64,000 nt of DNA, taken from assembly GCF_014199265.1 (NCBI RefSeq), contig NZ_JACIJG010000004.1, positions 124,001 to 188,000 of the forward strand, read 5' to 3'. The position numbers and the translations under genes were made by a program. Below are positions 5,325 through 42,104 of this stretch, piece after piece (position 1 is the first letter of the stretch; every line of letters begins with the position of its first letter). The notes below the pieces were generated by a model. It saw nothing but the letters and a program-made list of their open reading frames with translations. It made no database searches and was not told where the DNA came from. The DNA is from Brucella daejeonensis (GTDB lineage: Bacteria > Pseudomonadota > Alphaproteobacteria > Rhizobiales > Rhizobiaceae).

Positions 5325-5405
5325 AATCAAAGACGGTAGCTAAATCTTTGATTTCAAATGGTCGGAGCGGCGGGATTCGAACCCACGACCCCTTGATCCC
5401 CAGTC
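5325..5405. repeat. attL (left copy of the 81-bp direct repeat)
   Basis: It matches 41994-42074 with few differences. The uninterrupted identical core of about 41 bases (5356-5396) is the T-arm, acceptor stem and CCA end of tRNA-Pro, read on the minus strand. After 5405 the sequence departs from the tRNA. Confidence 0.92.
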
Positions 5406-23320: not shown

Positions 23321-23332
23321 ATGGAGAGCCGC

Positions 23333-26300
23333 GTGGCCGAAGAAAACACCGATATTATTCTATCCATTTCCTCAGATGTCGCATCGATGCGACGTGCGCA
23401 GAAGCGAATGGAAGAAATGCTGAACTCTATGGGCAGGAGTTCCGACAGCGCCTTCAATAAAATAGCAGACCGGGCCAATGCCGATATGCGCCGCATTGAG
23501 GAGGGCGCAATCAAGCTGCGCCGGCAGCTCGACGCGACATTTCAGCAGTCATTCGGGAGCAGCTTAAACAAAGGACTGGCTGCGGTTGGTTCCGTTCTCG
23601 GAACGAACGAAGTCCGCAAGTACGCAGACCAATGGACGACTGCCGAAAACATGTTGAAGGCAGCGACCGCTGCCACCGGTATGCAGACACGCTCGTTAAA
23701 GGAGTTGCGTTTTGGAGCGGACGACGCTCGCGTGTCCGTCGAGGATTACGTCGATCTTTACGCGCGCATGGTGCGCTCGGCATCTGGTGTAGCCAAGTCC
23801 GAGAACGAAATTGCGTTGGCGACCAATCTCGTTTCTAAAGCGTTCAAGGCCGGCGGCGCGTCTGCGCAGGAACAGGCGGCTGGTATTCTCCAGCTTGGTC
23901 AGGCGCTCGGCAGTGGCGTTTTGCAGGGTGATGAACTGCGATCGCTGCGCGAAAACGCGCCTATCGTCGCCAAGGCTATCGCGGATGAATTCGGCGTGAC
24001 GGTTGCGAAACTTAAAGATCTCGGCGCCGAAGGCAAGCTCACGTCTGATCGCGTGTTTAGAGCGATCATAAACGCGCAAAAGACGATTGAAGCACAGTTT
24101 GCCGCCACGAACGCGACCATTGGCGACGGCATGACCGCCATTAATAATGCCATGCTCCAGTATATTGGCACGGCCGGTGATATGACCGGCATTTCGGCCA
24201 CCGTATCGCGCGCCTTGATTCTGATTTCGCAGAATTTCGACCAGGTAGCGGATGCAGGCATGCAGCTGGCCGCGGTTCTGGCCGGTGTGCTCGTCGGTCG
24301 GTCTTTGGGCGGCATGATCCGGACGCTTGGAACCACGACAGCGGCTCTCGTTAAGTTCCATCAAGCGGCGAAGGCCGCGCAGGGCGCTATGGGCCTTGTG
24401 CAGGCTATGGGCGGTCTCGGAGCGGCAGCTGGCCCGCTTGGCGCTATTATCGGTGGTGCGCTTGTGCTGGCCGTTGGTAACTATACCGTCAGCGCCATGG
24501 CCGCGCAGAAAAACTCAGACTCTCTTCGCGCTGAGATGGAAAAGCTCGGGCTGGTTGCGCCCAAGGCCGCGGATGGGATCGATAAGGCGGCTGAGTCGCT
24601 GGATAATCTGGCCGATCCGGAGAAGGCGAGGAAGCTTAAGAATATCGCCAGTGAGCTTGAGCGGTTGCGGAATGGTGGCGGACGTTGGGGTAGCCTTCTT
24701 GGGCAGGGCGACGAACTGGATGTTTTGTCTGCGAATGCTACGGCTCCGCTCAAGAATGTCATGCAGAATCTTGGCATGTCAGATGCAGACAAATCTGCGC
24801 GACGTGAAATTGCAAACCTCATCAGCGATTTCCAAAACTTCGCAATTACCGCAGATAAGGCGAAGGAGCGACTTCATGCGATCAATAACACTTACGTCAG
24901 TAAGGGGGTCGTTGAACTTACTGAACGGGTTCAGGAATCCATTGACCGCATGTCTGGCCTTCAGGCCATGTCAACGCGCGTCGGCGAAATGCCCGGCATT
25001 CAGGAAGCCGAGCAGCGGGTTCTGGAGTTTCGCGATCAACTGGAAAACTTGCGCCAGCAGGAATTCATTGACGATCAGCAGAAGGCGCAACTTCAAGGAA
25101 TAATCGATAAACTCCTTGAAACCAAAACTGGTGCCGGTGAAGCGGTTACCGCCATCAACAGCCTGTCTAACGCCAACCCCAGCATTGCCGGTTTTCTCTC
25201 TACAATGGAGCAGGCCATTGTCACCTTGGGCGGAGTGTATGACGCTGCCGTGAAAGCCCGCAAGGCTATGGCCGCTGCCTACCCGGTAGGCGTCCCTGAC
25301 GAAGCAAAAGCCACAAGCTCCGCCAACGATCCCTTCATCATTCAGCGGAAAAAAGAAAATGCAGCCGCTGCCGATTTCGAGAAAAACGCCACCCGCCGCG
25401 CTGGCTTGACCAAGTCCCAGCTTGAGCTCGAAACTAAGCTGGCTGATGTCCGCAAGCGTCTTCAATCCGAAGGTGTGACGAAGCCAGACGAGGATATGGT
25501 GAAGCGCATCGCTGACGCCGAACTGGCTGGCGAAAAAGCTCGATCCAAGGAAGGCAAAAAGCCGAAGGACGTTAAGAAGTCCACCGACCAGAAGATCGAC
25601 TCCGACATCCAAGCTGTAAAGGACCGCACCGAAGCGTTGCGCCTCGAGGCCGAGATGGTCGGCAAGTCCACGGCCGAGCAGGAAAAGCGCCGCATAGCGA
25701 TGGATCTCGAGCAGGCCGCGCTGGCGAAGCTCAAGGACGAGGCGATCAAAAAAGGCCAGAAAGATTTGTCGAACATAAAAATTTCGGCGGATCAGCGGGC
25801 CCAGATCGACCAAGTTGCTGAGGCCTATGGACGGGAAGCGGCTGCCTTGCAGTTGGTTGAAGACCGGCAGCGACGTTCTGAGCAAGCCGCGAACGACTTT
25901 TACGAGTCATTCAAAAGCAGCACGATCGGTGCAATTACTGGCGCAAACAGTCTGGCGGACGCGTTGAAGAACATCGGCAACAGGTTGGCCGAACTGTTCC
26001 TGAACGCCGGTTTTGATGCTCTGTTTAAGCCGTCGTCCAACGGCATGAGTGGTGGAGCATTCGGCGGCTTCTTTAACAGCATCGGCAGTTTGATCGGGCT
26101 GAAAGACGGCGGCCAGATACCGGGCTATGATAGCGGCGGCCGTATTCGTGGTCCTGGCGGACCACGTGACGATAAGGTGCTTTTGTGGGGTAGCAACGGC
26201 GAGTTTATGATGAACGCGGCAGCAACGCAGAAGTGGCTGCCAGTACTTGAAGCCATGAACGCCGGTCGGTTGCCAGAACTGCGCGATGGTGGCGGAGTTG

Positions 26301-26590
26301 GCTTTTCGGCGCCGCGTATTTCGTCGGCGTCGATTCCTGTTCCTAGCATCCCCAGTGTCGCCCAGCTGTCGGGCAATTCCAGCGTCGATAACTCGCGCAC
26401 CGATAATTCGGTGAGCGGACCGACCATTAACGTGACGGTCAATGGTGCCACCGGCAATGCCGAAGTATCATCGATGGTGCAGGAAGGGATCGCAAAGAGC
26501 ATGATGGCCTGGCAGCGATCGCCTCATTTTGCGAATGCAGTTTCGCAGGGTGTCAAACAAGCCAATAGCCGCGGAATGTTGCGGCGCTGA
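23333..26590 (+). CDS. Tape measure protein
   Basis: About 1,085 residues, which sets tail length. The N-terminal half has the TMP tape_meas_nterm domain (TAENMLKAATAATGMQTRSLKEL, QEQAAGILQLGQALGSG, DELRSLRENAPIVAKAIADEFGV). A hydrophobic stretch (about 300-385) follows, then long charged coiled coil, and a C-terminal part with GGQIPGYDSGGRIRGPGG. The GTG at 23333 is preferred because GGAG lies 8 bases before it; an ATG at 23321 sits against the T-tract without a ribosome-binding site. Confidence 0.92.
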   Translation: MAEENTDIILSISSDVASMRRAQKRMEEMLNSMGRSSDSAFNKIADRANADMRRIEEGAIKLRRQLDATFQQSFGSSLNKGLAAVGSVLGTNEVRKYADQWTTAENMLKAATAATGMQTRSLKELRFGADDARVSVEDYVDLYARMVRSASGVAKSENEIALATNLVSKAFKAGGASAQEQAAGILQLGQALGSGVLQGDELRSLRENAPIVAKAIADEFGVTVAKLKDLGAEGKLTSDRVFRAIINAQKTIEAQFAATNATIGDGMTAINNAMLQYIGTAGDMTGISATVSRALILISQNFDQVADAGMQLAAVLAGVLVGRSLGGMIRTLGTTTAALVKFHQAAKAAQGAMGLVQAMGGLGAAAGPLGAIIGGALVLAVGNYTVSAMAAQKNSDSLRAEMEKLGLVAPKAADGIDKAAESLDNLADPEKARKLKNIASELERLRNGGGRWGSLLGQGDELDVLSANATAPLKNVMQNLGMSDADKSARREIANLISDFQNFAITADKAKERLHAINNTYVSKGVVELTERVQESIDRMSGLQAMSTRVGEMPGIQEAEQRVLEFRDQLENLRQQEFIDDQQKAQLQGIIDKLLETKTGAGEAVTAINSLSNANPSIAGFLSTMEQAIVTLGGVYDAAVKARKAMAAAYPVGVPDEAKATSSANDPFIIQRKKENAAAADFEKNATRRAGLTKSQLELETKLADVRKRLQSEGVTKPDEDMVKRIADAELAGEKARSKEGKKPKDVKKSTDQKIDSDIQAVKDRTEALRLEAEMVGKSTAEQEKRRIAMDLEQAALAKLKDEAIKKGQKDLSNIKISADQRAQIDQVAEAYGREAAALQLVEDRQRRSEQAANDFYESFKSSTIGAITGANSLADALKNIGNRLAELFLNAGFDALFKPSSNGMSGGAFGGFFNSIGSLIGLKDGGQIPGYDSGGRIRGPGGPRDDKVLLWGSNGEFMMNAAATQKWLPVLEAMNAGRLPELRDGGGVGFSAPRISSASIPVPSIPSVAQLSGNSSVDNSRTDNSVSGPTINVTVNGATGNAEVSSMVQEGIAKSMMAWQRSPHFANAVSQGVKQANSRGMLRR

Positions 26591-26597
26591 ATTAAAC

Positions 26598-26630
26598 ATG
26601 GACGGCCCAAAGGCCGTCCATTTTCTTTTT
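26598..26630 (+). terminator. Terminator-like hairpin after the tape measure gene
   Basis: A 10-bp perfect stem (26598-26607 with 26612-26621), CAAA loop, followed by TTTCTTTTT and immediately by the GGAG of the next gene. Confidence 0.85.
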
Positions 26631-26640
26631 GGAGATAAAG

Positions 26641-26883
26641 ATGAACATTTATTTCGTGACGCCAGCACCTGCACAAGGTGGCGACATTCGCGTACTGCAG
26701 GACGATGAAAAGACGCCGATCGTCGGGTTCTTGTCACATGAGGAAGCGGAGGACTTCGCACAGCGCATGGCCCGTCGCTATCCCGGTAATCAGTTTTGGG
26801 TCATGGAAGGCACGGCCACGAAGGCGTTTATTACCGATCCCTTGCCGGTGCGGGAATGCACTCCGGCCGTCGGGGAGTTCTGA
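26641..26883 (+). CDS. Small phage tail-region protein
   Basis: 80 residues (MNIYFVTPAPAQGGDIRV start), with a GGAG ribosome-binding site 6 bases upstream. Contains a compact alpha/beta pattern (EEAEDFAQRMARRYPGNQFWVM). No family is recognised. Its position right after the tape measure suggests a tail-associated or tail-control role. Confidence 0.6.
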   Translation: MNIYFVTPAPAQGGDIRVLQDDEKTPIVGFLSHEEAEDFAQRMARRYPGNQFWVMEGTATKAFITDPLPVRECTPAVGEF

Positions 26884-26884
26884 A

Positions 26885-27496
26885 ATGGCCGAAACGCTTC
26901 CCGAAGGCCTAAATTATCAGGCGAGCCCGCTCAAGCTCAATCGGTCAGTTTCAACGTCCCGATACGGCGATCGGGCAGTCGCGTTCATCGAGAATGGCGA
27001 TCCATATTGGTCGTGGACCGCCAGTATAATCTCGCTTAGCCCTGCCGACCGAAAGCGGCTTGAGGCGTTTTCAGATCGCTGCCGCGGCGGTCAGGTGACG
27101 GTCCACTTCACGCCGAAAGACGCTTGTATTCCGCAAGCCTATTGGGGCGACGCCGATAATCCGGCAATCACAGGCACCGCGACGCTGGCTGCGATCAACG
27201 GCAACTCGCTGACTTTCAACGGCGTGGTGTCTGGACTGATTTTGACGGAAGGCGACCTGCTAGGCTTTACGATCGGCGACTACAACTTCATCGCGCGCGT
27301 TGTAGCCGACGCCACTGCGGTCAGTACGAGTTTGCAGGTGAAGATCGAGCCGTTTCTGCCTTCATATATCGGCGTCGGCTCTACGGTGCGTTTCAAGAAT
27401 CCCGTCATGAATATGCGGATGATGCCGAACAGCTTGGAAATCGGCGATGGCTTTTTCCCCGATGCATCATTTCAGCTTGTTGAAGTGCCGAGGTAG
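26885..27496 (+). CDS. Minor tail protein, probable
   Basis: 203 residues, starting 2 bases after the preceding stop. It is beta-rich: YGDRAVAFIENGDPYWSWTASI, a middle domain with ATLAAINGNSLTFNGV, and the end GDGFFPDASFQLVEV. The pattern resembles the distal-tail/minor-tail proteins that follow tape measures in siphophages. It is the last recognisable tail gene. The convergent helicase gene begins 4 bases later, where tail-tip genes would be expected. Confidence 0.7.
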   Translation: MAETLPEGLNYQASPLKLNRSVSTSRYGDRAVAFIENGDPYWSWTASIISLSPADRKRLEAFSDRCRGGQVTVHFTPKDACIPQAYWGDADNPAITGTATLAAINGNSLTFNGVVSGLILTEGDLLGFTIGDYNFIARVVADATAVSTSLQVKIEPFLPSYIGVGSTVRFKNPVMNMRMMPNSLEIGDGFFPDASFQLVEVPR

Positions 27497-27500
27497 TAGC

Positions 27501-28544
27501 CTATGTTCGTTTACTTGTGGTCTTAAAGGTCGATAACAGTTTTTCAGGAACGAAAAAAAGATCCCGCCTAGCCCTGGAGCACGCGACATATAGTTTGTTG
27601 CGTGTTTCGGGATTGATGTTAAGAAAACTGCCGCTTTCCCATGCTTTAACATTGCTCGGATTGAGTACCACGCATACGTCTTGGTAACTGTCGATCCCTT
27701 TTGATCCACCCCAGTTATTTGAAAAGCAACCAAACTTGTAGTGTTCTTTCAAGAACAGTTTTACTATGTTTGGATCTCGGTAAATCTCATGCGCTGCTTT
27801 TTGGTCGTCCAAATATTTAACTGTTGTTTCTTTTGGGCCTGACGATTGGATCGAAATTCCTATTCGATCGGTAATAAAATCACAGACGGTCTTACTGCAC
27901 CTTCTGCTAAACTTCAGGCTGAAATTGTCTAAGTTAAAATTAGCTTTTCTAAATCGTTGTTGATAGGCTTCAAAGTCTAGGTGAAGATTAGAGTTCACGT
28001 TGCCGTCGCGGCTGGTGTCAAAAGTATGTTGATAAAAATCACCAACAAAAACACTAGTCAATTCTGATTCACTAATAGCCAAGAGAAAATTGAAGTCATG
28101 ACCTGAAAAGTCTTGAACTTCATCAACAAGCAAAACGTCGAAATATCGTTCCAGTCGATGGTTTATTGCTTTGTACAGATTTTCTTTCTCAAGCAATTTT
28201 GCAACGCGATTTGAATAAAGATACCGATTTTTAGTGATATATCTTCTATCATCGATAGAGCTGTATCTAGGAAATATAGGAGGGAGATCAAAAATTATTC
28301 CTCGCGTATTCTTTCTTTGTCTTAAAAACGGTTTATAGCAGAATCCGTGCAAAAAGCTGAAGTACGTAAAAATTATTATGTTCGCAGGTAAGTACCCAAA
28401 TCTATTTATTATTTTGGTGCGAATGTTGTTATAGTTCGCCTGAGTGTAAGTTATAATTAAGAAGCGACGCTCCTCATCCAAGCTTGAAACGAGGTGTGTA
28501 GTCTTTCCGGCGCCGGCAACCGCAAAAATTACGCTCTTATCCAT
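27501..28544 (-). CDS. UvrD/PcrA-like SF1 helicase (GajB-like)
   Basis: 347 residues. Motif I is AGAGKTT (about 10-16), Ia TYTQAN, II DEVQD at 141-145, III VGDFYQ at 167-172, IV-like FSRRC, V SKGIDSYQDV at about 280-289 and VI YVACSRAR at 319-326. All SF1A motifs are present, but the protein is short for UvrD and for typical GajB (about 490), so accessory subdomains are reduced. It begins inside the end of the OLD gene (16-base overlap), so the two are co-translated. OLD nuclease plus UvrD helicase is the Gabija anti-phage arrangement, where the helicase partner senses DNA or nucleotide changes. Base composition is strikingly AT-rich. Confidence 0.85.
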   Translation of the reverse strand: MDKSVIFAVAGAGKTTHLVSSLDEERRFLIITYTQANYNNIRTKIINRFGYLPANIIIFTYFSFLHGFCYKPFLRQRKNTRGIIFDLPPIFPRYSSIDDRRYITKNRYLYSNRVAKLLEKENLYKAINHRLERYFDVLLVDEVQDFSGHDFNFLLAISESELTSVFVGDFYQHTFDTSRDGNVNSNLHLDFEAYQQRFRKANFNLDNFSLKFSRRCSKTVCDFITDRIGISIQSSGPKETTVKYLDDQKAAHEIYRDPNIVKLFLKEHYKFGCFSNNWGGSKGIDSYQDVCVVLNPSNVKAWESGSFLNINPETRNKLYVACSRARRDLFFVPEKLLSTFKTTSKRT

Positions 28545-30097
28545 GTTATTGCTTTTTGGATGTAATCTGGAACGGCTAGAGATGCACCATGGGCGCAAAG
28601 CAATTGGAACGCTGCGTCTGTTTTGTTTTTCAGCATGAAATCCTGAACTGTTAGCTTCTTTCTGCCCTCGGAGAATAGTGTTTCGCACTTCTCTCTATTG
28701 TCTTGATACATACAGACTTCGAATGTCGAGCGATTGTTATCAGTGTCTGCAAAAATATTTATGCTTTCCGTTGTGTAATTTTCGTAGTTGGCTACACAGT
28801 TTGTTTGGAAGTCGCTATCATTGTCGCGAATAGCGGCAACTTTTATTCCCAGTATCTTGGCAAGCTCAAGGTATCTCTTAAAGCTAGTCCCATCGATTGA
28901 AATGATATGGACGCCATCTTCATCAGGACTGATCCCATCAGTGCAATTCTTATAAAGAGCATCCATGAGAATGAACTCGGCGTCACCCTCGAGGAGGATC
29001 GCTTTTTTACACAATGCTAGTTCCAAGACATTGTTATCGGGCGCTTTCATAAAAAATTTTGCGGTTTCATTGCTCAAGTGCTTGAGCGTTGCCGGTCGGG
29101 AAGGGTATTCCTCACTGAGGATTATGACGTTTTGCAAATCCAATCGGGTCGCAATGAAGCTGCTGTGAGTGGCAATGATTAACTGCTTCTTTGTTGAAGA
29201 CCGTATGCGATCAATCAATTGGCGCATGTGAACATTGCTTAGATGGTTTTCTGGCTCTTCCAGTAGGAGTAAATCGAGACCTTGCCCTTCATTCCGTAAT
29301 GCAAATTCTGTTTTTATGAAGCATTGACGGCCCTTTCCCTTGCTATCAACAGGAATATCAGCTTCGGTAAGGATGATATCAGTTTCTACATTCGATTTTT
29401 GGCTTGTGCGCAGATCAAATTGATATTTTGGTAATGTGTCATTCAGTGACTTGAGTACGCTTTCTGTGAATCTCGATTTGGATTTGCGATACTCGAAGCT
29501 GTGATGATTTCGCTCAGATGCCGATGCATGTGCGGCATACATCGCACGGGTGTATTCGCGGGTGGCATATTCGTTATTGATTTGAGAGCTATCAATCAGG
29601 AGGTGTCGAACAGGCTTCCTATAATGGAAAATTGCCTCGTCGGTAAAAGTCTGAAAATGAATTGAATAATATTCAAATGGGAAACTGTCGTGCGCATCAG
29701 ACAGTATTGTCGAGATATCTTTCGAATATTCGTCCATTGGCTTGCATGTTAATTTAATGCCAATATGATCTCTACCGTAGGTGTTATTTCGACCGTCTAG
29801 ATCGAAGCGTCCTTGAATATCGTCTAGATAAATCTCAACCAACATTTCCGGTAAATCTTCGATGCGCCTAGCGCTGCGCATAAATGCGGCGATCGTCTCC
29901 GCATTTAACAGGTTTTCCAAACCTGCTGACTCGATCTTGCTACGACTAGCGCTGAGGACAAGATCTATTGCTTGCAGTACTGAACTCTTCCCCGCCTCGT
30001 TACCGCCAATAAGGACATTGATGTCGTTGGAGAAATCCAATTCCAGAGATTTGAAACGCTTGAAGTTTCTCAGAATAAGCTTTTTTATTGTGGCCAT
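28529..30097 (-). CDS. OLD-family ATP-dependent nuclease (GajA-like)
   Basis: 522 residues. The ABC-type ATPase half has Walker A GGNEAGKS at 31-38, a signature-like GQGLDLL at about 271-277, Walker B LLLLEEPENH at 277-286 and His-switch ATHSS at 309-313. The TOPRIM half has Glu370 in LLEGDAE, GTSFKRYLELAKILGIKV and the acidic pair D425/D427 in AIRDNDSD. These are the features of class 2 OLD nucleases, which pair with UvrD-like helicases. In Gabija, GajA nicks DNA when nucleotides fall. The start at 30097 overlaps the end of a small membrane-protein gene by 13 bases. AT-rich, so horizontally acquired. Confidence 0.88.
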   Translation of the reverse strand: MATIKKLILRNFKRFKSLELDFSNDINVLIGGNEAGKSSVLQAIDLVLSASRSKIESAGLENLLNAETIAAFMRSARRIEDLPEMLVEIYLDDIQGRFDLDGRNNTYGRDHIGIKLTCKPMDEYSKDISTILSDAHDSFPFEYYSIHFQTFTDEAIFHYRKPVRHLLIDSSQINNEYATREYTRAMYAAHASASERNHHSFEYRKSKSRFTESVLKSLNDTLPKYQFDLRTSQKSNVETDIILTEADIPVDSKGKGRQCFIKTEFALRNEGQGLDLLLLEEPENHLSNVHMRQLIDRIRSSTKKQLIIATHSSFIATRLDLQNVIILSEEYPSRPATLKHLSNETAKFFMKAPDNNVLELALCKKAILLEGDAEFILMDALYKNCTDGISPDEDGVHIISIDGTSFKRYLELAKILGIKVAAIRDNDSDFQTNCVANYENYTTESINIFADTDNNRSTFEVCMYQDNREKCETLFSEGRKKLTVQDFMLKNKTDAAFQLLCAHGASLAVPDYIQKAITWIRA

Positions 30098-30462
30098 GCT
30101 GCGATAACCTGTAGAGCTGCACCGATAATGACAGCGCAAAAGCCTAACCTAAAAATCCACATTCGCCGGTTGAGCCGATGAACACTGTCAAGAATCAATA
30201 TCGAATCCAGTTGTTCGGCGGTGACGGTGTCGGGATCAACGTTCTCGAGCAGCTTTTTGGCCTTTGGAGAAATATCGGTGTAGCCATTGAATTTCGGCGA
30301 GCCACCGGACTTCGCAATCAAGTCAGATTGTTCAATTTCCAGTCTATTTAAACTGTCATACATCGAAGTGCGCCATTCGAACGCAAGCATGCAGACTCCC
30401 AAGGTATTGATGAGAATCCCTATAGGGGAGAGCCAAGGAAGCGCTAAAAGATTCTCGATCAC
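30085..30462 (-). CDS. Small membrane protein upstream of the OLD nuclease
   Basis: 125 residues with a GTG start. One transmembrane segment lies near the N-terminus (IGILINTLGVCMLAFEW) and one near the C-terminus (FRLGFCAVIIGAALQVIAAW); between them is a soluble loop of about 65 residues. No family is recognised. It begins 6 bases after the preceding gene's stop and overlaps the OLD nuclease start, so all four genes form one transcript. It could be an accessory part of the defence cassette or an older prophage gene whose promoter the cassette uses. Confidence 0.65.
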   Translation of the reverse strand: MIENLLALPWLSPIGILINTLGVCMLAFEWRTSMYDSLNRLEIEQSDLIAKSGGSPKFNGYTDISPKAKKLLENVDPDTVTAEQLDSILILDSVHRLNRRMWIFRLGFCAVIIGAALQVIAAWPQ

Positions 30463-30468
30463 TCTGCT

Positions 30469-30774
30469 TTACCTATCCGCAAAGATCTGCGCAGGCCTAG
30501 CCGTGCGGGCTGTCGAGACCGGAGCAGGGGCACTTCCAGCCACTGGCTGTTTCCCGCTGAGCGAAGCAGCGATCTGCTTTTGTGACTCGCTAATGCTTGC
30601 AGCGTATTCGACCAATTGTCCGATGCAATAGAGAAACACGCCAGAGACTACGGCGCTGCACCCTGCGGTAAGCGCAAATGAACCGCCGCGGTTCATCTCG
30701 ATAAAGCCCATAAGCGCCAACAGCGCACCGCCGACCAAGCTTAATAGCCCAAGAATTTTTGCCGCTGTTGCCAT
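30469..30774 (-). CDS. Small two-TM membrane protein
   Basis: 101 residues. Two hydrophobic segments (KILGLLSLVGGALLALMGFI and AGCSAVVSGVFLYCIGQLVEY) are followed by a Pro/Ala-rich cytoplasmic-type tail. It is a paralogue of the protein at 37091-37324, with the same layout and the same GGAGGGGCA leader before the ATG. It is the first gene of the operon that ends with the OLD and helicase genes. The function is unknown. Confidence 0.65.
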   Translation of the reverse strand: MATAAKILGLLSLVGGALLALMGFIEMNRGGSFALTAGCSAVVSGVFLYCIGQLVEYAASISESQKQIAASLSGKQPVAGSAPAPVSTARTARPAQIFADR

Positions 30775-31107
30775 GATTGCCCCTCCAACACGATAATCTG
30801 GAAGGTGCCTCATTTAGCCGGCGATATCAACTATCGAAGCGTCTTGTGGGACGCCGTACTGGGCTGAACGGTCTATACCTGGCGTGGAAACAATTCCGCT
30901 CGAACGCTGAGGATGCCGACGGGCGAAGCGCCAGATCCTCACGCCAATATCAAGCTGGAATTGTGTGGTAGCAGGCTTGCTATCGGTTCGGGGAGCAAGA
31001 CGCGGCCAGTCGCGTGTATGATCTGAACAAGATCAATTTCTTCCCGGAGAGTCTTTTAAATGGGTACTGCTAACAAGCCCAGCCCCCGCTGGGCGGGTCA
31101 TGAAGCC
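30775..31107. other. Intergenic region upstream of the OLD operon
   Basis: About 330 bases with no convincing gene. It should contain the promoter of the minus-strand OLD operon. A 7-bp GC hairpin with a CCC loop near 31078-31096 (arms GCCCAGC and GCTGGGC) may end the gene at 31108. Confidence 0.5.
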
Positions 31108-31347
31108 TTATTCCATGTCAGGTATATCTCCCCACTGAAACAGAACAGCAGGCGGTCCATATTCTCCAACGTGGGGATCTGCTTCGCGGCTCCACGCGAC
31201 TACACCGACATGTTTGCCCTCCAGCGATTGCGCTGCACGTAACGCACGGCTCTCTGTTTCAAATGCCATGGGTTCGAACGCCGGAACCAACTCGCCGTCT
31301 GCATTACGGTCGAATGCTGCAACCACGATAAGCCGCGCATTGGTCAT
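31108..31347 (-). CDS. Conserved small hypothetical protein
   Basis: 79 residues: ARLIVVAAFDRNADGELVPAF, then ALRAAQSLEGKHVGVVAWS and ending GDIPDME. I recall this as a widespread short Rhizobiales protein of unknown role, often on mobile elements. It is alpha/beta-like and soluble. It starts 6 bases after the stop of a 42-codon gene on the same strand and is probably co-transcribed with it. Confidence 0.65.
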   Translation of the reverse strand: MTNARLIVVAAFDRNADGELVPAFEPMAFETESRALRAAQSLEGKHVGVVAWSREADPHVGEYGPPAVLFQWGDIPDME

Positions 31348-31353
31348 TTAATT

Positions 31354-31482
31354 TTACTTTCCGTCGGTGTTAAGGTCCAACTCCGGATTATTGTCCGCCT
31401 TGGTTTGGCTCTTCTTTTTTGAGAGACTGCCAGTTTTAGGTTCTGCAGGGCGGTCAGGAGTGCTCGTAAACTTAATGGCCAT
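31354..31482 (-). CDS. Very small basic hypothetical protein
   Basis: 42 residues, MAIKFTSTPDRPAEPKTGSL at the start and rich in Lys and Ser after that, probably disordered. The frame starts with ATG at 31482 and ends with TAA 6 bases before the next gene on the same strand. Short proteins beginning MAIKF...P are common in Rhizobiales genomes. Its function is unknown. Confidence 0.55.
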   Translation of the reverse strand: MAIKFTSTPDRPAEPKTGSLSKKKSQTKADNNPELDLNTDGK

Positions 31483-31695
31483 AATCGTTTCAAATCTCCA
31501 TGAGAAATGTTGCTATTTTGTTCTCGTGACGCGTGTATGTCAGATATTTTTGCACATGTCCAACGATTGCTAGAAGCACGGCATTGGTCAACACCAAAAG
31601 AGCTCGCGGTGATGTATATGCGCATGAACCTAATCATCCCGGAAATCCGTCAAATATTGCAAATCGGGTCATAACGAAGTTGTGTAAGCTCAACG

Positions 31696-31920
31696 CTACC
31701 GGCTATTGCGCAAGCCCTTTTTTGAGGGTGGCGGCATAATGCTCTCCATCTCTTGGCGTTGTTTTCGCAAGCGCAGCGTCTTGGCAACCCGCTCGTCTAC
31801 TTCCGCGTCGAGAATAGTACGCACGGCTTTATTGGTGCGTGAAGCGACCGACTCCCGAGAGGAAGGGACGGGCTTGAAAAGAGTATGTTTCGTAAAGGAG
31901 CCGCGTGGATCTTGGGGCAA
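31696..31920 (-). CDS. Small hypothetical protein (TTG start)
   Basis: 74 residues if the TTG at 31920 is used; AAGGA lies 9-10 bases before it. It reads as a basic helical protein (RTNKAVRTILDAEVDERVAKTL) with an N-terminus PQDPRGSFTKHTLFKPVPSS that looks gene-like rather than random. No family. It heads a small minus-strand cluster with 31354-31482 and 31108-31347. Confidence 0.5.
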   Translation of the reverse strand: MPQDPRGSFTKHTLFKPVPSSRESVASRTNKAVRTILDAEVDERVAKTLRLRKQRQEMESIMPPPSKKGLRNSR

Positions 31921-31953
31921 TTGTTGTAATCCTTTTTAAAGGTAAATAAAAAA

Positions 31954-31973
31954 GGTCGGGCAATGGCCCGACC
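31954..31973 (-). terminator. Terminator after the cold-shock gene
   Basis: A perfect 8-bp stem (31954-31961 with 31966-31973) with four-base loop; on the minus strand it is followed by T6. Confidence 0.82.
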
Positions 31974-32035
31974 CTAAGTCAACTTCTTTCGACAGTGCCA
32001 GTACATCCGTGGTCAAAGGAAAGAAAATCAGCGAT

Positions 32036-32245
32036 TTAAGCGGCTTGCAGGTTGCAGGCCGACATTTTGCCGGACTTGCGATCCTGCTCCAGATCATAAG
32101 TAAGCTTCTGGCCTTCGGTCAGCGAGTACATACCTGCGCGTTCAACCGCAGAGATATGAACAAACGCATCGCCACCGCCATTCTCAGGCTGAATAAACCC
32201 AAAGCCCTTTGCTGTATTAAACCATTTAACTGTGCCGGTGTTCAT
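32036..32245 (-). CDS. Cold-shock domain protein, CspA family
   Basis: 69 residues. The RNP1 motif KGFGFIQ and RNP2 motif DAFVHIS are intact, in a five-strand OB fold that binds single-stranded RNA and DNA. The ribosome-binding site is AAAGGGG, 6 bases before the ATG at 32245; a frame extending to 32260 is unlikely. Carriage inside a prophage is unusual but known for such small genes. A long AT-rich leader (32246-32551) precedes it, as in cold-inducible csp genes, and a terminator follows. Confidence 0.92.
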   Translation of the reverse strand: MNTGTVKWFNTAKGFGFIQPENGGGDAFVHISAVERAGMYSLTEGQKLTYDLEQDRKSGKMSACNLQAA

Positions 32246-32551
32246 TGGAACCCCTTTCATAGAAATATTGATAGCCGCATTTGAAGCAAACGCAGAGATG
32301 AAACGATTTTTTAAAGGGAGTTTTCGTCAACGCACGGCGCTAATCGTGCAGAAAGTTAAGCTCAACAAGAAAATCTCGATGCCATCTTTTAGCAATTTTA
32401 ATAATGTTTGTCAAATTTTTAATATGGTTCAGCTAATTTAAATTATAAAAATACTTAAATATCTTAACATTCCCGTTGTTTTTACGGGGGGTATAACGAT
32501 TTCAATTTATTATTTGAGAGGCCCTATTTGGGCCCCACCAAACAATAATGG
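32246..32551. other. Long AT-rich leader region of the csp gene
   Basis: About 305 bases, strongly A+T-rich in 32340-32520, with no gene. It should hold the csp promoter and a long 5' untranslated region. A short hairpin (GGCCC/GGGCC, around 32521-32536) may end the upstream minus-strand gene. Confidence 0.5.
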
Positions 32552-32776
32552 TTAAGCCGTGCCATAAGCGGAAGACGCTTCCGTCCGCGGACCTGGGATC
32601 GTTTGAATGTCGCCCATTACTCCAGCCATAAAACTCTTCAGAATTAACGCTGACTCATTATAATGGGGTCCTGGTAGGGGCTTCATCCTGGACGTGAGAT
32701 AGCCGGCCTTAATAATCATCTGCTTTAGAATGCGATGGTTTGAGTGAAGATCGCCATTATAGATAATGGAAGACAT
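32552..32776 (-). CDS. MSS-type small protein, copy D
   Basis: 74 residues starting MSSIIYNGDLHSNHRILKQM, then IIKAGYL. It shares the GGAGGACGNNATGTCTTCC start context and the layout (helix, Gly-containing turn, helix) with the proteins at 34605, 35927 and 36582. The function is unknown. Its leader (32797-32853) contains hairpins like those of the other copies. Confidence 0.6.
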   Translation of the reverse strand: MSSIIYNGDLHSNHRILKQMIIKAGYLTSRMKPLPGPHYNESALILKSFMAGVMGDIQTIPGPRTEASSAYGTA

Positions 32777-32796
32777 AGCGTCCTCCTTTCAAATTG

Positions 32797-32853
32797 CGGG
32801 CAAGGGCAATTCAACCCGTGTCAGCGAAGCCCGTAATCAATTAAATCGCTGAC
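32797..32853 (-). promoter_or_regulatory. Structured leader, copy D
   Basis: On the minus strand an 8-bp hairpin (32846-32853 with 32820-32827) has ACGGGC in its loop, followed by a weaker hairpin (cggg/cccg, 32797-32818) and then the ribosome-binding site. It is the most divergent of four related leaders. Confidence 0.45.
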
Positions 32854-32975
32854 AACCCATGGTGGACGGATAGTGCTTGGATAGCAAGCGAACAATTAAG
32901 GTGACTTAGGGGCAGTGTATCCAATGTACTGACGCAAACGGAAGGATTTCGTCCGCGCTAGGCTGACCTCTACCT

Positions 32976-33009
32976 AAAAAGAACCCCGCGGCATCGAGGT
33001 GCGGGGTTG
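32976..33009 (-). terminator. Terminator after the 33071-33265 gene
   Basis: An 8-bp stem (32983-32990 with 33002-33009); on the minus strand it is followed by CTTTTTAGG. It supports the reality of the small gene upstream. Confidence 0.7.
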
Positions 33010-33070
33010 GAAGTCATATGTCATCGGCAAGCAAATTCTATTCCTCGAAAGGAGAAAATCAAGCCGCGAT

Positions 33071-33265
33071 TCACTCGCGATGTTTTCTCTCCGCAGCCTC
33101 CAAGCGCGCCAAAAGCTCCGAAATCGTGTTTTCATTATTGTTGGAGCATGTCACCGCAAAACCGTCTTTCAACGCCTCTGCTATAGCTTGCGATGGAAGA
33201 TCACGACGTCTCACGCCAGCGGCAAATTGTCTCACCGAATGGTATAGTTCTGTTTGGTTTGTCAT
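33071..33265 (-). CDS. Small hypothetical protein
   Basis: 64 residues: TELYHSVRQFAAGVRRRDLP then SQAIAEALKDGFAV and a helical charged end. It looks like a short helical DNA- or protein-binding peptide, but no family is known. The ribosome-binding site is poor. A good terminator lies 60 bases downstream, which supports expression. An overlapping plus-strand frame is less protein-like. Confidence 0.45.
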   Translation of the reverse strand: MTNQTELYHSVRQFAAGVRRRDLPSQAIAEALKDGFAVTCSNNNENTISELLARLEAAERKHRE

Positions 33266-33583
33266 GCACCCAACGCCGCAATCATTTTCAGCATAACGAG
33301 CTGGCGGTGGCTATGTTCCAATAACGAGCACACCGAAATATATATTCTGCAAAGCCCGTAAATCTCCCAACCAGTAAGGCCACGCCTGGAAAAGGTGGGT
33401 ACTAGCAGTGGACGCCTGCTCGGCTCGGAAAATTATGTAGGCATAAAAATTCACTTCGGCGCCGCAAGACAACTCAGAATTAAAATGAATAAAGAATTCG
33501 CGCGAAAGTTGATTGCGTTGGTGCTATAATCAAAATCCAACGCATAATTATGTGCGTTCGATCATTGAAGATCGGATACCATC
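33266..33583 (+). promoter_or_regulatory. Intergenic region with extended -10 promoter
   Basis: About 320 bases without a gene. TG-C-TATAAT at 33522-33530 is a perfect extended -10 for the plus strand, 54 bases before the next ATG. A near-palindrome containing GCATAATTATG (about 33543-33553) lies just downstream and shares TGCATAA-like words with the region beside the Xre gene. Confidence 0.55.
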
Positions 33584-33934
33584 ATGAACAAGTTTGAATG
33601 GTTAAAGCCCGCACTCGGCGGCGCATCGGTTGGTGCCATTGCAGCAATTGCTATCGGGTTTTCCGTAGGTGGATGGGTCACACAAGGCACTTCTGAGCGC
33701 CGGATTGCATCCAACATATCCGACGGGGTGGCGCTTGCCTTGACACCTTACTGTCTTGAAAAATCAAGAAACGATCCGGCTGTTGTGAACATCCTGGCTG
33801 AGTTTAAGGCTGCCCCAGCTTACTCTCGCCGTACTCTTATTGAGAAGTCAGGTTGGGCCACACCGTTGGGAACAGAGCAACCCAACACCGCGCTGGCAAC
33901 TGCGTGCGGCAACGAACTCGCCAAGGCGCTTTAG
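33584..33934 (+). CDS. Small membrane-anchored hypothetical protein
   Basis: 116 residues. One hydrophobic segment (GASVGAIAAIAIGFSVGGWV, about 10-29) looks like a signal anchor, followed by a periplasmic-type domain with two Cys (TPYCLEK and TACGNEL) that could form a disulphide. I recognise it as a common short Rhizobiales protein with the FSxGGWVTxGT motif. Its function is unknown. It is driven by the extended -10 promoter just upstream. Confidence 0.62.
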   Translation: MNKFEWLKPALGGASVGAIAAIAIGFSVGGWVTQGTSERRIASNISDGVALALTPYCLEKSRNDPAVVNILAEFKAAPAYSRRTLIEKSGWATPLGTEQPNTALATACGNELAKAL

Positions 33935-33965
33935 TATGGCGGGGAAGCCTAATGAGGAGGCTATC

Positions 33966-34196
33966 ATGAAAAAACAACGTAATCGTAACATTGGATTGGA
34001 AACTGCTTCTGTACGTCCACGGCACGATGAGGACACGACAGCCAGCAGAAGTGATCTCAGAAATGCTCATGAACAGATGACCTCTCCATCAAAGGATTGG
34101 ACGCAGCTTGCGAACATTCTTCGGCGTTCTTGCGGTGGATTCTCACGTTCCCGGTCGCCGCGCCATTCTTTACCGAGGAGCAAACGCAATGGATAA
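33966..34196 (+). CDS. Small basic hypothetical protein
   Basis: 76 residues, highly basic (MKKQRNRNIGLETASVRPRH start; SRSRSPRHSLPRSKRNG end), probably disordered. The GAGGAGG ribosome-binding site is strong. It overlaps the next start by 8 bases. No family. Confidence 0.45.
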   Translation: MKKQRNRNIGLETASVRPRHDEDTTASRSDLRNAHEQMTSPSKDWTQLANILRRSCGGFSRSRSPRHSLPRSKRNG

Positions 34197-34425
34197 TGAC
34201 ACCACAGCTCTAGAACGAAAGGTTCTTGCACATGAGCAGATACTTCAGGTTCTCATCGGGCATCTAGCCGAGACCGAACCCAAATTTCTGGATCGACTTA
34301 AAGCAGTATTCACGCATCATCATATTCTTGGCCCCAATGAACAGAACTACGTTAATACAGCGCAGTATGCCGAACAATTCATTCACGAAATCGAGAAGAT
34401 GCAAGGGTATAAGGCAACGCGTTGA
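34189..34425 (+). CDS. Small hypothetical protein
   Basis: 78 residues: LERKVLAHEQILQVLIGHLA, then KAVFTHHHILGPNEQNYVNT and a helical end. It has a GAGGAG ribosome-binding site 8 bases upstream. Soluble and helical. The layout resembles short conserved proteins of Rhizobiales genomic islands. Its function is unknown. Confidence 0.6.
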   Translation: MDNDTTALERKVLAHEQILQVLIGHLAETEPKFLDRLKAVFTHHHILGPNEQNYVNTAQYAEQFIHEIEKMQGYKATR

Positions 34426-34534
34426 TTTTCTTCGGATCATGATTATCTGATAGGAGTTTTGAGCCGATTATTTCTAAATAAATATCACGTGTTTGCTTGC
34501 ACTTTAATTCGAAAAGGCGCACTGTTCATTATGC

Positions 34535-34579
34535 ACAGCTTTTGAAACGGGCGCTGTCGTTGGGAGAGAACGATCTCCC
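34535..34579 (+). promoter_or_regulatory. Structured leader, copy A
   Basis: Hairpin 1 is ACAGC/GCTGT (34535-34539 with 34553-34557) with GAAACGGGC in the loop. Hairpin 2 is a 6-bp stem (34562-34567 with 34574-34579). The ribosome-binding site and ATGTCTTCC follow at 34593-34613. Confidence 0.6.
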
Positions 34580-34604
34580 GCCCCAAAAATGAAGGGGACA
34601 CGCG

Positions 34605-34952
34605 ATGTCTTCCGCTTCATATCTATCCTACTTTGGCCCTGAAGATTTCCCGTCGCTTCGTGCTTTCCTGCAACGTTCCGGATATTCGCTGGAGGGTTGC
34701 GAAAAGCCAGAGACTCGCCTGGAAGCCGCCAAACACCTTTGTGAAATTTTCAGCGACGGAAGCCATGATCCTGTGCAGATGCTGGACATACTTTTGGCAA
34801 TCCGCGCCCAACGGCTATCACAATCCAATCAAAGAGAACTGGAAGCCTGGGAGAATGAGGGCGGCTATACGATCCCGCAAGTCACTGCAAAATCCTTGGT
34901 CTTGCGATGGCCTCCTCGAAAGCGGCTCCGATTGAGGTTGGCCCATGGCTGA
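34605..34952 (+). CDS. MSS-type small protein, copy A
   Basis: 115 residues, the longest of the group. SYFGPEDFPSLRAFLQRSGY aligns with PYFGPTDFRMMREILRRAGY of the protein at 35927-36166. An EAAKHLCEIFSDGSHDP segment matches the shared AARxxxxxFxxG region. The C-terminus after about residue 85 is unrelated. Starts ATGTCTTCC after a structured leader. It overlaps the next gene by 8 bases. Confidence 0.62.
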   Translation: MSSASYLSYFGPEDFPSLRAFLQRSGYSLEGCEKPETRLEAAKHLCEIFSDGSHDPVQMLDILLAIRAQRLSQSNQRELEAWENEGGYTIPQVTAKSLVLRWPPRKRLRLRLAHG

Positions 34953-35226
34953 TATTTTGCGTTCCCCAATATCAGGCATTGAGGTGAGAGAGCGAAGGAT
35001 TGGGTCTCGCCGTAACCAGCTCTATCCCGCAATCCGGAATATTGTGCGGATAGAAAACAGGGTCCGCGAACCGTTCAGCGCGAGATGTTTAGCCAAACAC
35101 ATGCCCTCGACGCATATACCTTGGTTGAAAAGCTATTTGAGCTCTCATGCGGCAACGTCGCTTCGGGACCGAGAGGCATATTTCGTGAGGGTATGTCGGG
35201 GCTGGTATCGTCTCAATGACACGTGA
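34945..35226 (+). CDS. Small basic hypothetical protein
   Basis: 93 residues, rich in Arg, no recognised domain, with a C-terminus that looks folded (YFVRVCRGWYRLND). It overlaps both neighbours, so it is part of a three-gene operon with 34605-34952 and 35216-35359. Confidence 0.45.
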   Translation: MADILRSPISGIEVRERRIGSRRNQLYPAIRNIVRIENRVREPFSARCLAKHMPSTHIPWLKSYLSSHAATSLRDREAYFVRVCRGWYRLNDT

Positions 35227-35359
35227 TCAATCTGGCGAGGAGAAACTGTCAGTCCCAAAATCGTTGGATCGTAAAGTGAGCGTGTATCTGATCGCGTTCC
35301 TCATAATATGCATCGATATCGGATTGGTCGTCTGGGTGCTCGGCTCCTACGTCTATTAA
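35216..35359 (+). CDS. Very small single-TM protein
   Basis: 47 residues. The N-terminal half is charged (MTRDQSGEEKLSVPKSLDRK) and the C-terminal half is one transmembrane helix (VYLIAFLIICIDIGLVVWVL). It begins inside the end of the previous gene (11-base overlap). The function is unknown. Confidence 0.5.
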   Translation: MTRDQSGEEKLSVPKSLDRKVSVYLIAFLIICIDIGLVVWVLGSYVY

Positions 35360-35382
35360 TTACCAAGCAGTCATGCGTGGCG

Positions 35383-35658
35383 CTAAAACGTATGCTTTCC
35401 CACAAGAATGAAGTCTGCACTTCCGTGAATGCCGACGTTTTGTACGTCCACCCTCAGCAAACCATCGCCTTTTTCCGACGATAACTGAACGAGCTCGCTT
35501 GAATAAGCCTGCCGGAGCATGTCCATGCTTGCCCACATGACGCCTTTTGTAAACGTCCTCTCGCCTTCCGTGAGTACGGAAATACTGTAGCCAACAGAAC
35601 CGATACTTTTACCTTCGCAATACAAATTACCTATTGAACTAAATGTAGACGTTGGCAT
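35383..35658 (-). CDS. Small hypothetical protein
   Basis: 91 residues from the ATG at 35658, which has GGGG 8 bases upstream. It is beta-rich (GKSIGSVGYSISVLTEGERTF; LLRVDVQNVGIHGSADFILV). A longer frame would start with GTG-TCT-TCC at 35709, oddly like the MSS start context, but lacks a ribosome-binding site. No family. Confidence 0.5.
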   Translation of the reverse strand: MPTSTFSSIGNLYCEGKSIGSVGYSISVLTEGERTFTKGVMWASMDMLRQAYSSELVQLSSEKGDGLLRVDVQNVGIHGSADFILVGKHTF

Positions 35659-35717
35659 GATTGTACCCCGATACGGCTGTGTCTCCTCACCAAGAAAAGT
35701 GGAAGACACAGCTATAA

Positions 35718-35861
35718 CTAATGCCGTTTGGTTTTGATCATGTCATTGGCAGGAGTAGGAAAGAGACCTGCAACAACGTCTGTCGACGCAGTTTTCTCCT
35801 TGGCCTTATCTTTTTTTGGCTTTCTTATTTCTCGGTTACTTCTTTTTTGACCACGGGGCAT
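35718..35861 (-). CDS. Very small basic protein (MPRGQKRS type)
   Basis: 47 residues: MPRGQKRSNREIRKPKKDKA, then a Thr/Ala segment and VVAGLFPTPANDMI. AGGAAG lies 9 bases before the ATG. Short proteins of this kind are common in Rhizobiales; they are basic and probably unstructured at the N-terminus. The function is unknown. It shares a strand with 35383-35658 and may be co-transcribed. Confidence 0.58.
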   Translation of the reverse strand: MPRGQKRSNREIRKPKKDKAKEKTASTDVVAGLFPTPANDMIKTKRH

Positions 35862-35926
35862 TTTGAAAACTTCCTGTTTTTGAGGAATTAACTAATTCTT
35901 GCATACCCGACCAAGCCAGGGATGGT

Positions 35927-36166
35927 TCAAATTACCGCTGGAGATACTTCCACATTCTCACGGGGATGTTGCCGAGAAAGCTGCGACATCGCTCGCGATG
36001 GTGAGCGTACAGATTGAAATTCCTGAATGAATAGCCTTGCTGCGGATATGTGAGCGGCACGGTTTTCTGCGGTGTCGTAAAGCCGATAGCCGGCGCGTCG
36101 CAGTATTTCACGCATCATTCGAAAGTCGGTAGGTCCAAAGTAGGGTTTGATAATTTTGGAAGACAT
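35927..36166 (-). CDS. MSS-type small protein, copy B
   Basis: 79 residues: MSSKIIKPYFGPTDFRMMRE, then ILRRAGYRLYDTAENRAAHI and AARLFIQEFQS. It is the best match to the 34605 protein. Start context GGAGGACGAAATGTCTTCC. Helical, soluble, function unknown. Confidence 0.62.
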   Translation of the reverse strand: MSSKIIKPYFGPTDFRMMREILRRAGYRLYDTAENRAAHISAARLFIQEFQSVRSPSRAMSQLSRQHPRENVEVSPAVI

Positions 36167-36189
36167 TTCGTCCTCCTTGTATTGGGGCT

Positions 36190-36232
36190 GGAGTATGCAC
36201 TCCCAACGACAGCGCCCGTTTCAAAAGCTGTC
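36190..36232 (-). promoter_or_regulatory. Structured leader, copy B
   Basis: On the minus strand hairpin 1 is GACAGC/GCTGTC (36227-36232 with 36208-36213) with loop containing GAAACGGGC; hairpin 2 is GGAGT/ACTCC (36190-36203). The SD and start of copy B follow at 36160-36178. Confidence 0.6.
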
Positions 36233-36318
36233 GAGACATGCACCATGCGCTTTAAATTTGAGCAAAGCAACTGAGGCTGAATTGCGACGGCAGATCGGCT
36301 CAATCATTGCATAAAAAG

Positions 36319-36582
36319 CTACTTCATGTCCTCCATGGTGATGCGATAGGAAGTTTGCCGAGCCTGTGAATAGACCTCGCGAGCAGCATCGTAGATCAGT
36401 TTCCGTGAGGCGTCGAAGGCGGCAAGAAGCGATGATTCCGTCGCTGCAATGACGCCATTCTTCTCCAGGGCGGGCTTATCGATTAGAAATGGGACGGAGG
36501 TCATTCCATCGTAGCCGACAAATCGCACGCCCACCTCAAGATCATCGAAACTTCTGCTGGGGTTTGGAAATGAAAGGGCCAT
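36319..36582 (-). CDS. DUF1488 family protein
   Basis: 87 residues: MALSFPNPSRSFDDLEVGVR, then FVGYDGMTSVPFLIDKPAL and a helical second half. This is the DUF1488 pattern found across Rhizobiales. The function is unknown. Its ATG overlaps the stop of the upstream MSS gene by one base (TAATG), so they are co-translated. Confidence 0.78.
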   Translation of the reverse strand: MALSFPNPSRSFDDLEVGVRFVGYDGMTSVPFLIDKPALEKNGVIAATESSLLAAFDASRKLIYDAAREVYSQARQTSYRITMEDMK

Positions 36583-36836
36583 TACTTTTCGCTTTTTACT
36601 GCGTCGCCTTCGTCATCGCAACGATCGACGGCATTTGCCATTCTTCGATGTTTTTTGATAAATTGTGTCAGGGCGATCTGTAGCCGGCCTTCGTCACGTG
36701 TTCCCTCCTGAAATCGACGCGCCAGATAACGTGCAGCATCAGTGCGCAAATCTTGTGTGTCGCCGGGTTTGCGAGCCTCCCTTAGAAGTCGCGAAATCAT
36801 AGTGATGTTTCTGGAATTCAACGCGATGGAAGACAT
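36582..36836 (-). CDS. MSS-type small protein, copy C
   Basis: 84 residues: MSSIALNSRNITMISRLLRE, then ARKPGDTQDLRTDAARYLAR and RFQEGTRDEGRLQIALTQFI. It has the clearest version of the shared C-terminal AARxLxxxFxxGxxDxxxLxxAL pattern. Start context GGAGGACGAAATGTCTTCC. Operon with the DUF1488 gene. Confidence 0.65.
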   Translation of the reverse strand: MSSIALNSRNITMISRLLREARKPGDTQDLRTDAARYLARRFQEGTRDEGRLQIALTQFIKKHRRMANAVDRCDDEGDAVKSEK

Positions 36837-37090: not shown

Positions 37091-37324
37091 TCAATTCGTG
37101 TTCCCCAGCTTCTCAGCAATGCGCTCCTGGGCGGCTCGGATCGCGCCCAGATGCTCGATCACCCGTCCCATGCACATCATGAAAATCCCGAACGCGATCG
37201 CGGAGAATCCGTAGGATAAAAACGTTATCGTGAATAACCCGCTGCGATCCGCCAGCCCATTAATGATAACGATCACGCCTGCCACGATAGAAATAAGACC
37301 AAATATAAGTGCAGCAACTGACAT
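37091..37324 (-). CDS. Small two-TM membrane protein
   Basis: 77 residues with two hydrophobic segments (LIFGLISIVAGVIVIINGL and YGFSAIAFGIFMMCMGRVIEH) and a helical tail (RAAQERIAEKLG). It is a paralogue of 30469-30774, and both have GGAGGGGCA before the ATG. The function is unknown. Confidence 0.6.
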   Translation of the reverse strand: MSVAALIFGLISIVAGVIVIINGLADRSGLFTITFLSYGFSAIAFGIFMMCMGRVIEHLGAIRAAQERIAEKLGNTN

Positions 37325-37379
37325 TATGCCCCTCCGTTCGATGGCCGACGCTAGAACGGTTGCAATTGTCGCGCAATAG

Positions 37380-39700: not shown

Positions 39701-39708
39701 GGTGCAGC

Positions 39709-41993: not shown

Positions 41994-42104
<111 letters not shown>

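What the first reader, a model, noticed from the sequence alone, without database searches (positions are those of the whole stretch)
27501..30774. Four-gene Gabija-like cassette with two small membrane proteins
An OLD nuclease and a compact UvrD-like helicase are arranged as GajA/GajB with a 16-base overlap. Upstream and co-transcribed are a 125-residue two-TM protein (13-base overlap with the nuclease) and a 101-residue two-TM protein. Membrane partners are not part of described Gabija. The helicase is about 150 residues shorter than usual. This may be a variant system, prophage-borne defence against other phages.
Basis: partly seen in the sequence, partly recalled or inferred. Interest (0 to 1): 0.78.

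Follow-up and report, generated by a model that had tools for sequence, protein, structure and literature searches.

The report
Compact Gabija in prophage cargo slot
A prophage in an Ochrobactrum/Brucella-group bacterium carries a short, ordinary form of the Gabija anti-phage system in a slot where sister prophages carry other cargo; the two small membrane genes beside it seem to belong to the slot, not to Gabija.

Summary
The four genes are real and as described, but the four-gene Gabija variant is not supported. GajA (522 aa) and GajB (347 aa) form a complete compact Gabija pair: PADLOC GajA E 2e-111 and GajB E 2e-45, motifs intact, predicted folds matching OLD/GajA and SF1 helicases. The short GajB and the 16-base overlap are clade features: 85 of 91 relatives with an adjacent GajB share the overlap, and 82 of those 85 GajBs have 337-353 residues. 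The membrane genes do not travel with the pair: of 92 related GajA loci, only the window's own prophage and one Ochrobactrum prophage hold a p101/p125 relative. The nearest p101 relatives (97%, 93%) have no GajA beside them, and a 78%-identical p125 overlaps an unrelated gene by the same 13 bases. p101 and p125 sit at the edge of a variable slot behind a tail gene, where sister prophages carry other cargo, including a restriction-modification pair, dGTPase with Schlafen-AlbA, and PD-Lambda-3_B. Verdict: a known defence system in a phage cargo slot that I did not find described. What p101 and p125 do is unknown; independent lysogen-expressed membrane genes seem most likely.

The parts
27501..28544 (-). 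gajB, compact UvrD-like SF1 helicase/ATPase, 347 aa
   Evidence: PADLOC PDLC00148 GajB E 1.9e-45 over 1-332; Pfam UvrD-helicase; model pLDDT 89.2; Foldseek hits include Gabija chains 8tk1_F (rank 7) and 8sm3_B (rank 39) among other SF1 helicases
28529..30097 (-). gajA, OLD-family ATPase/TOPRIM nuclease, 522 aa
   Evidence: PADLOC PDLC00102 GajA E 2.3e-111 over 3-519; Pfam AAA_15, OLD-like_TOPRIM; model pLDDT 90.0; end-to-end match to 6p74 and 8sm3_A
30085..30462 (-). p125, two-TM protein at the slot edge; not a Gabija component on this evidence
   Evidence: No hit in Pfam, PADLOC or PHROGs at E<=1, only two weak NCBIfam hits far under cut-off; 78% relative in L014 precedes an unrelated gene with the same 13-nt overlap
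30469..30774 (-). p101, two-TM protein of a family found in many genomes of this genus
   Evidence: 11 of 35 genus genomes, own included, have a match; 97% relative without GajA beside it
26885..27496 (+). distal tail protein gene, conserved right flank of the cargo slot
   Evidence: phrog_1302 distal tail protein E 1.9e-35; 82-100% DNA identity over the flank (all or part of 26391-27496) in 14 of 22 loci
31001..32800 (.). conserved left flank of the cargo slot (79-aa gene 31108-31347, 74-aa gene 32036-32260 and neighbours)
   Evidence: 94-99% DNA identity in L165, L166, L171 with different cargo between the flanks
37103..37336 (-). second p101-like gene in the same prophage, 38% identical
5325..5405 (.). 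attachment repeat, left end of prophage
   Evidence: 81 bp, 95% identical to 41994-42074
41994..42074 (.). attachment repeat, right end of prophage, overlapping tRNA-Pro 42028-42104

Best explanation
The locus is a compact two-gene Gabija system (GajA nuclease plus a GajB that lacks much of the usual C-terminal half) that sits as apparently recently acquired, low-G+C cargo in a variable slot of a temperate phage, between the distal tail gene and a block of small genes. p101 and p125 are resident or independently shuffled small membrane genes at the edge of the slot and assort with other cargo too. Mechanism, all inferred from characterised Gabija: GajB binds and hydrolyses ATP on incoming DNA, GajA is held off by ATP and nicks or cuts linear phage DNA when released, so that a lysogen resists other phages. 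Shown here: gene content, motifs, fold, clade, slot, lack of linkage in the loci seen. Inferred: activity, complex, anti-phage benefit, expression in the lysogen.
For: identity, motifs, fold; short GajB and 16-nt overlap are clade features; no p101/p125 relative in 90 of 92 GajA loci, 88 of 92 with over 600 nt upstream; p101 relatives without GajA; p125 before another gene with the same overlap; same flanks, different cargo; among 41 loci read at this place GajA is in WIN and L164 only, one prophage; six of the 41 hold under 4 kb behind the tail gene; cargo includes defence families; G+C 40-44% over 28001-30000 against 56-57% over 24001-27000.
Against: Both Gabija loci found in the genus do have a p101-type gene upstream, and a single origin of their GajA is not rejected (p-AU 0.604), so an old p101-Gabija association is not excluded by the GajA tree. 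The collections hold few phages of this group: only two distinct p125 genes. No activity was tested.
Confidence: 0.85

Rival explanations
1. One reading: a four-gene Gabija variant in which the two membrane proteins act as effectors or anchors of the nuclease-helicase complex.
For: Tight spacing and the 13-nt overlap of p125 with gajA; a p101-like gene 69 nt upstream of gajA also in L057.
Against: No p101/p125 relative in 90 of 92 GajA loci. GajA relatives cover 80% or more of the query in 1675 of 72,556 plasmid records, while p125 finds no plasmid match and p101 one weak match in an Ochrobactrum plasmid (neighbours of those plasmid genes were not inspected). p101 and p125 occur beside other cargo, and the nearest p101s (97%, 93%) have no GajA beside them.
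Confidence: 0.06
2. p101 and p125 are independent lysogen-expressed membrane proteins, for example for superinfection exclusion, that happen to lie upstream of Gabija. Compatible with the best explanation.
For: Same strand as the cargo and opposite to the tail genes; p101 family spread through the genus; p125 is 78% identical between phages with different cargo.
Against: No family match of known function; p101 and p125 also occur apart, so they need not form one module.
Confidence: 0.35
3. p101 and p125 are lysis proteins (holin and antiholin).
For: Small two-TM proteins on a phage; a weak p101 hit to a holin family, phrog_1527 at E 0.36.
Against: Opposite strand to the structural genes and next to cargo; distant copies in many genus members; E 0.36 is chance level.
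Confidence: 0.04
4. The Gabija pair is a decaying passenger of a defective prophage and does nothing.
For: Tail-tip genes that follow the distal tail gene in other phages are not found in the window.
Against: Both ORFs are full length, with ATPase, TOPRIM and helicase motifs intact. An inactive prophage can keep an active defence.
Confidence: 0.08

Closest known systems
Gabija (GajAB; B. cereus VD045 type; PMC10781630, section Main and passages read; PMC10681800, passages)
   Same: OLD-type ATPase/TOPRIM nuclease followed by a UvrD-like helicase; Walker A/B, TOPRIM E and DxD, DExQD box; fold comparisons list 8sm3 chains A and B
   Different: GajA 522 aa, the B. cereus chain being numbered to 575; GajB 347 against 494 aa, the missing length mostly in the C-terminal half where BcGajB has its accessory (2B/Cacc) subdomain
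PADLOC compact GajB class (PDLC00148, 369 positions; PDLC00140, 365 positions)
   Same: Matches nearly full length (1-332 and 2-334), with GajA models of 532 and 534 positions matching 3-519 and 4-520
   Different: The window clade is somewhat removed from the closest members: E 4.5e-44 here against 1e-119 to 1e-147 for five of the eight genomes that match in the order
Phage-borne defence hotspots, such as those of P2-like phages and P4 satellites (PMC9122126, passages read)
   Same: Fixed flanks, interchangeable cargo with defence genes
   Different: Another phage group (tRNA-Pro prophage of the Brucella/Ochrobactrum genus); the slot lies directly behind the distal tail gene, where other relatives have tail-tip genes
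Class 1 OLD nuclease (TsOLD, 6p74)
   Different: Class 1 OLD genes stand alone (PMC10568477, passages read); here a helicase follows

Membership tests
Gabija | OLD-family protein with ABC-type ATPase and TOPRIM domains | tested here: met
Gabija | Adjacent UvrD/PcrA/Rep-like helicase gene | tested here: met
Gabija | Catalytic residues: Walker A/B, TOPRIM Glu and DxD, helicase DExQD box | tested here: met
   K37, E280-E281, E370, D425 and D427 of GajA and K14, D141-E142, Q144-D145 of GajB invariant in alignments of 39 and 34 sequences; residue roles by my comparison with PMC10781630
Gabija | Accessory 2B/Cacc subdomain of GajB as in B. cereus (seen there, not part of the family definition) | tested here: inconclusive
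   Roughly 130 residues fewer after the N-terminal core than in BcGajB (limits; my own boundary on the model); no domain-by-domain superposition was run
Gabija | 4:4 GajA-GajB complex and anti-phage activity | not testable with these tools
   Needs protein and infection assays
Four-gene Gabija variant with membrane partners | Membrane genes recur with the GajAB pair in other backgrounds | tested here: not met
   90 of 92 related GajA loci hold no p101 or p125 relative, 88 of 92 with over 600 nt upstream; both genes occur with other cargo. One partial exception: p101-like gene in L057
Phage defence cargo hotspot | Same flanks with different content in sister phages | tested here: met
   Both flanks at 89-100% DNA identity with four different contents in WIN/L164, L165, L166, L171
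Phage defence cargo hotspot | Contents include recognised defence genes | tested here: met
   Between both flanks: Gabija and PD-Lambda-3_B; with the tail flank only: Type II methyltransferase plus REase-model protein, dGTPase, Schlafen AlbA_2; several cargo genes have no match
Phage defence cargo hotspot | Cargo protects the lysogen | not testable with these tools
   No assay

The most novel reading that the evidence does not exclude
p125 is a slot-resident membrane protein that is translationally coupled, by a conserved 13-base overlap, to whatever cargo gene lands behind it, and tunes or localises that cargo; together with a GajB stripped of its accessory domain, this would be a membrane-tethered minimal Gabija.
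Probability: 0.07. Interest if true: 0.6.

Novelty: new member of a known kind. Interest (0 to 1): 0.3.

Why it matters
It removes a false lead: membrane partners should not be added to Gabija on the strength of this locus. It also points to two useful things: a large clade of minimal GajAB pairs on chromosomes, plasmids and prophages, whose short helicase is a natural test of which GajB parts the mechanism needs; and a cargo slot in temperate phages of the Ochrobactrum/Brucella group whose unmatched contents are candidates for new defence genes.

Tried and rejected
Holin reading of p101/p125: only an E 0.36 match; rejected. Phage records (INPHARED): p101 and p125 have no match, GajA only two Listeria records at 32%. 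Sequence search against solved structures did not list a Gabija chain for GajB at E<=5 (14 rows, all shown), nor for GajA among the 60 of 85 rows shown; the fold comparisons did list them. In the VIA-align list for GajB (50 entries shown) no Gabija entry appears; that says nothing against membership. A GajA tree meant to show two separate acquisitions in the genus failed to do so: one clade is not rejected, p-AU 0.604, although neither free tree made one (5% of 200 bootstrap trees). Vreelandella L102 has an unrelated two-TM ORF before gajA; doubtful and not pursued. A long-GajB control by PADLOC model PDLC00118 gave a match in 1 of 150 genomes, L205, which was not used. No Rfam match in 26000-38000. 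Foldseek for the GajA model (library pdb) never ran; the VIA-align second look did run. p101 and p125 were not folded: both prediction jobs went to GajB and GajA.

Literature: searches for Gabija, Gabija with transmembrane/accessory gene, Ochrobactrum with prophage and defense system, prophage hotspot with Gabija and Gabija with Brucella: among the papers listed I saw no title or abstract start on this slot or on membrane partners of Gabija; listings only. Passages were read in PMC10781630 (also section Main), PMC10681800, PMC12407980, PMC9122126 and PMC10568477; no paper was read whole.

Rows dropped before counts: the 92 loci are 80, 7 of 8 (L126 left out as the same prophage as L046) and 5 of 7 (own copy L001 and stop-bearing L007 left out); L009-L012 repeat loci and were left out. 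One search kept the best 80 of 292. In one search, L022 was left out as identical to L021, and repeats of the window's own prophage were left out. Searches printed more than was shown; the cut parts were reprinted in part, and the presence of GajA, p101 and p125 was recounted over all of them.

Full report
Observation. The four ORFs are present at the stated places on the minus strand, with the stated 16- and 13-base overlaps. They lie in a prophage of about 36.7 kb bounded by an 81-bp repeat (95%) at tRNA-Pro, with an integrase at 5533-6795 and a tape-measure gene at 23321-26590. The host belongs to the genus that holds Brucella pseudintermedia and Ochrobactrum chromiisoli: contigs of two same-genus genomes have exactly the lengths of those named records, and the B. 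pseudintermedia one carries the same prophage (GajA 100%; 99% over 19.5 kb). Base composition over 28001-30000 is 40-44% G+C against 56-57% over 24001-27000, which suggests a recent arrival.

Why the short helicase is ordinary. Of 92 related GajA loci, 91 have an adjacent GajB (the other, L127, ends at the end of its DNA). In 85 of these 91, GajB can start 16 nt inside gajA as here, and 82 of those 85 have 337-353 residues. They come from Pseudomonadota, Bacteroidota, Acidobacteriota, Campylobacterota and others. GajA relatives are also on plasmids: in 1675 of 72,556 records one place covers 80% or more of the query. Compared with B. cereus GajB (subdomain limits in PMC10681800, passages), the missing residues fall mainly in the C-terminal half; I infer loss of the accessory 2B subdomain but did not measure it.

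Why the membrane genes are not part of it. Upstream of gajA, a small ORF with two or more hydrophobic stretches was found in 3 of 92 loci (88 with more than 600 nt upstream): L046 (the window's own prophage), L057 (O. chromiisoli, a 79-aa p101-like gene 69 nt away) and L102 (an unrelated ORF). A search of all ORFs in the 92 loci finds a p101 relative in L046 and L057 only, and a p125 relative in L046 only. Conversely, p101 matches occur in 11 of 35 genomes of the genus. Of 16 distinct ones aligned, two lie beside GajA, one is the window prophage's second copy, and 13 have no GajA hit in the DNA fetched around them. The two beside GajA have as closest kin genes with no GajA beside them: 97% (L016) and 93% (L024). 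p125 was found in only one other phage (L014/L171), 78% identical, where the next gene is an unrelated 213-aa ORF that overlaps it by the same 13 nt: the overlap comes from the end of p125, not from Gabija. Against this: both Gabija loci of the genus have a p101-type neighbour, and their GajAs may form one clade (p-AU 0.604).

The slot. The distal tail gene (phrog_1302) and the left block at 31001-32800 are shared at 89-100% DNA identity by four prophages with different contents: Gabija plus p125 and p101 (window, L164); a PD-Lambda-3_B gene with others (L165); genes without a match among those scanned (L166); an ORC-CDC6-like ATPase with the 213-aa gene and p125 (L171). With the tail flank alone shared at 82% or more, L172 carries a cytosine methyltransferase and a REase-model protein plus a near-copy of the PD-Lambda-3_B gene (264 of 266 residues), L179 a dGTPase and a Schlafen-AlbA protein next to p101, and L184/L185 a stretch with a 708-aa gene that I take for a catalase from recall only. 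Of 41 loci read at this place, counting the window, GajA is in the window and L164 only, which are one prophage; six of the 41 hold under 4 kb behind the tail gene. In the diverged O. chromiisoli prophage, GajB ends within about 25 nt of a piece of the same tail gene, so Gabija sits in the equivalent place there too. Tail-tip genes that follow the distal tail gene in L173 and L175-L178 (in part in L174, L171 and L182) were not found in the window's 64 kb nor in L164-L170, L172, L179, L181 and L183; some of those loci are cut by contig ends. The prophage may thus be defective, or may use other tip genes.

How it most likely works. By analogy only: in B. cereus, GajA and GajB form a 4:4 complex, and changes in the GajA-GajB interface markedly reduce defence (PMC10781630, passages and section Main); in P. 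aeruginosa, Gabija stops circularisation of incoming linear DNA that RecBCD does not occupy (PMC12407980, passages). A lysogen carrying the compact pair would attack competing phages at injection and spare its own integrated DNA. No step of this is shown here.

Verdict. Known system, compact branch, in a cargo slot that I did not find described (searches, listings only). Interest is low to moderate: the pair is ordinary; the slot and its unmatched contents deserve a catalogue.

Noticed in passing
window 30974-31055: An 82-bp non-coding element beside p101 recurs at 80-91% identity, in whole or part, in L036-L038, L184, L185 and once more in the own genome (G000:C2:59497-59578); origin unknown.
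   Followed up: partly
window 37103-37336 (-): A second p101-like gene, 38% identical, in the same prophage.
   Followed up: partly
window 27496-42000 and L164-L172: Tail-tip genes (188, 145, 866 and 527 aa in L191) that follow the distal tail gene in related phages were not found in the window and most slot phages (L171 has two of them), so these prophages may be defective.
   Followed up: partly
L165:8715-10752; L166:10816-11838 and 13618-14388; L170:11424-12491; L167:11778-12692: Slot cargo genes without a Pfam match (PADLOC asked for three of them, L165:8715-9533, L166:10816-11838, L170:11424-12491, no match either): candidates for undescribed defence or other lysogen genes.
   Followed up: no
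L172:14141-15343 and L170:13109-13501: A 130-aa three-TM gene stands before the PD-Lambda-3_B type gene in L172 and recurs at the end of L170; but L165 has that gene without it.
   Followed up: no
window 38386-39399 (+): 337-aa ORF with transposase-family hits in the right half of the prophage (phrog_4285, E 4.4e-11).
   Followed up: no
L204:3501-6187: Unannotated Listeria phage record with a 527-aa GajA relative (32%) and a 372-aa helicase-like ORF, also overlapping by 16 nt.
   Followed up: no
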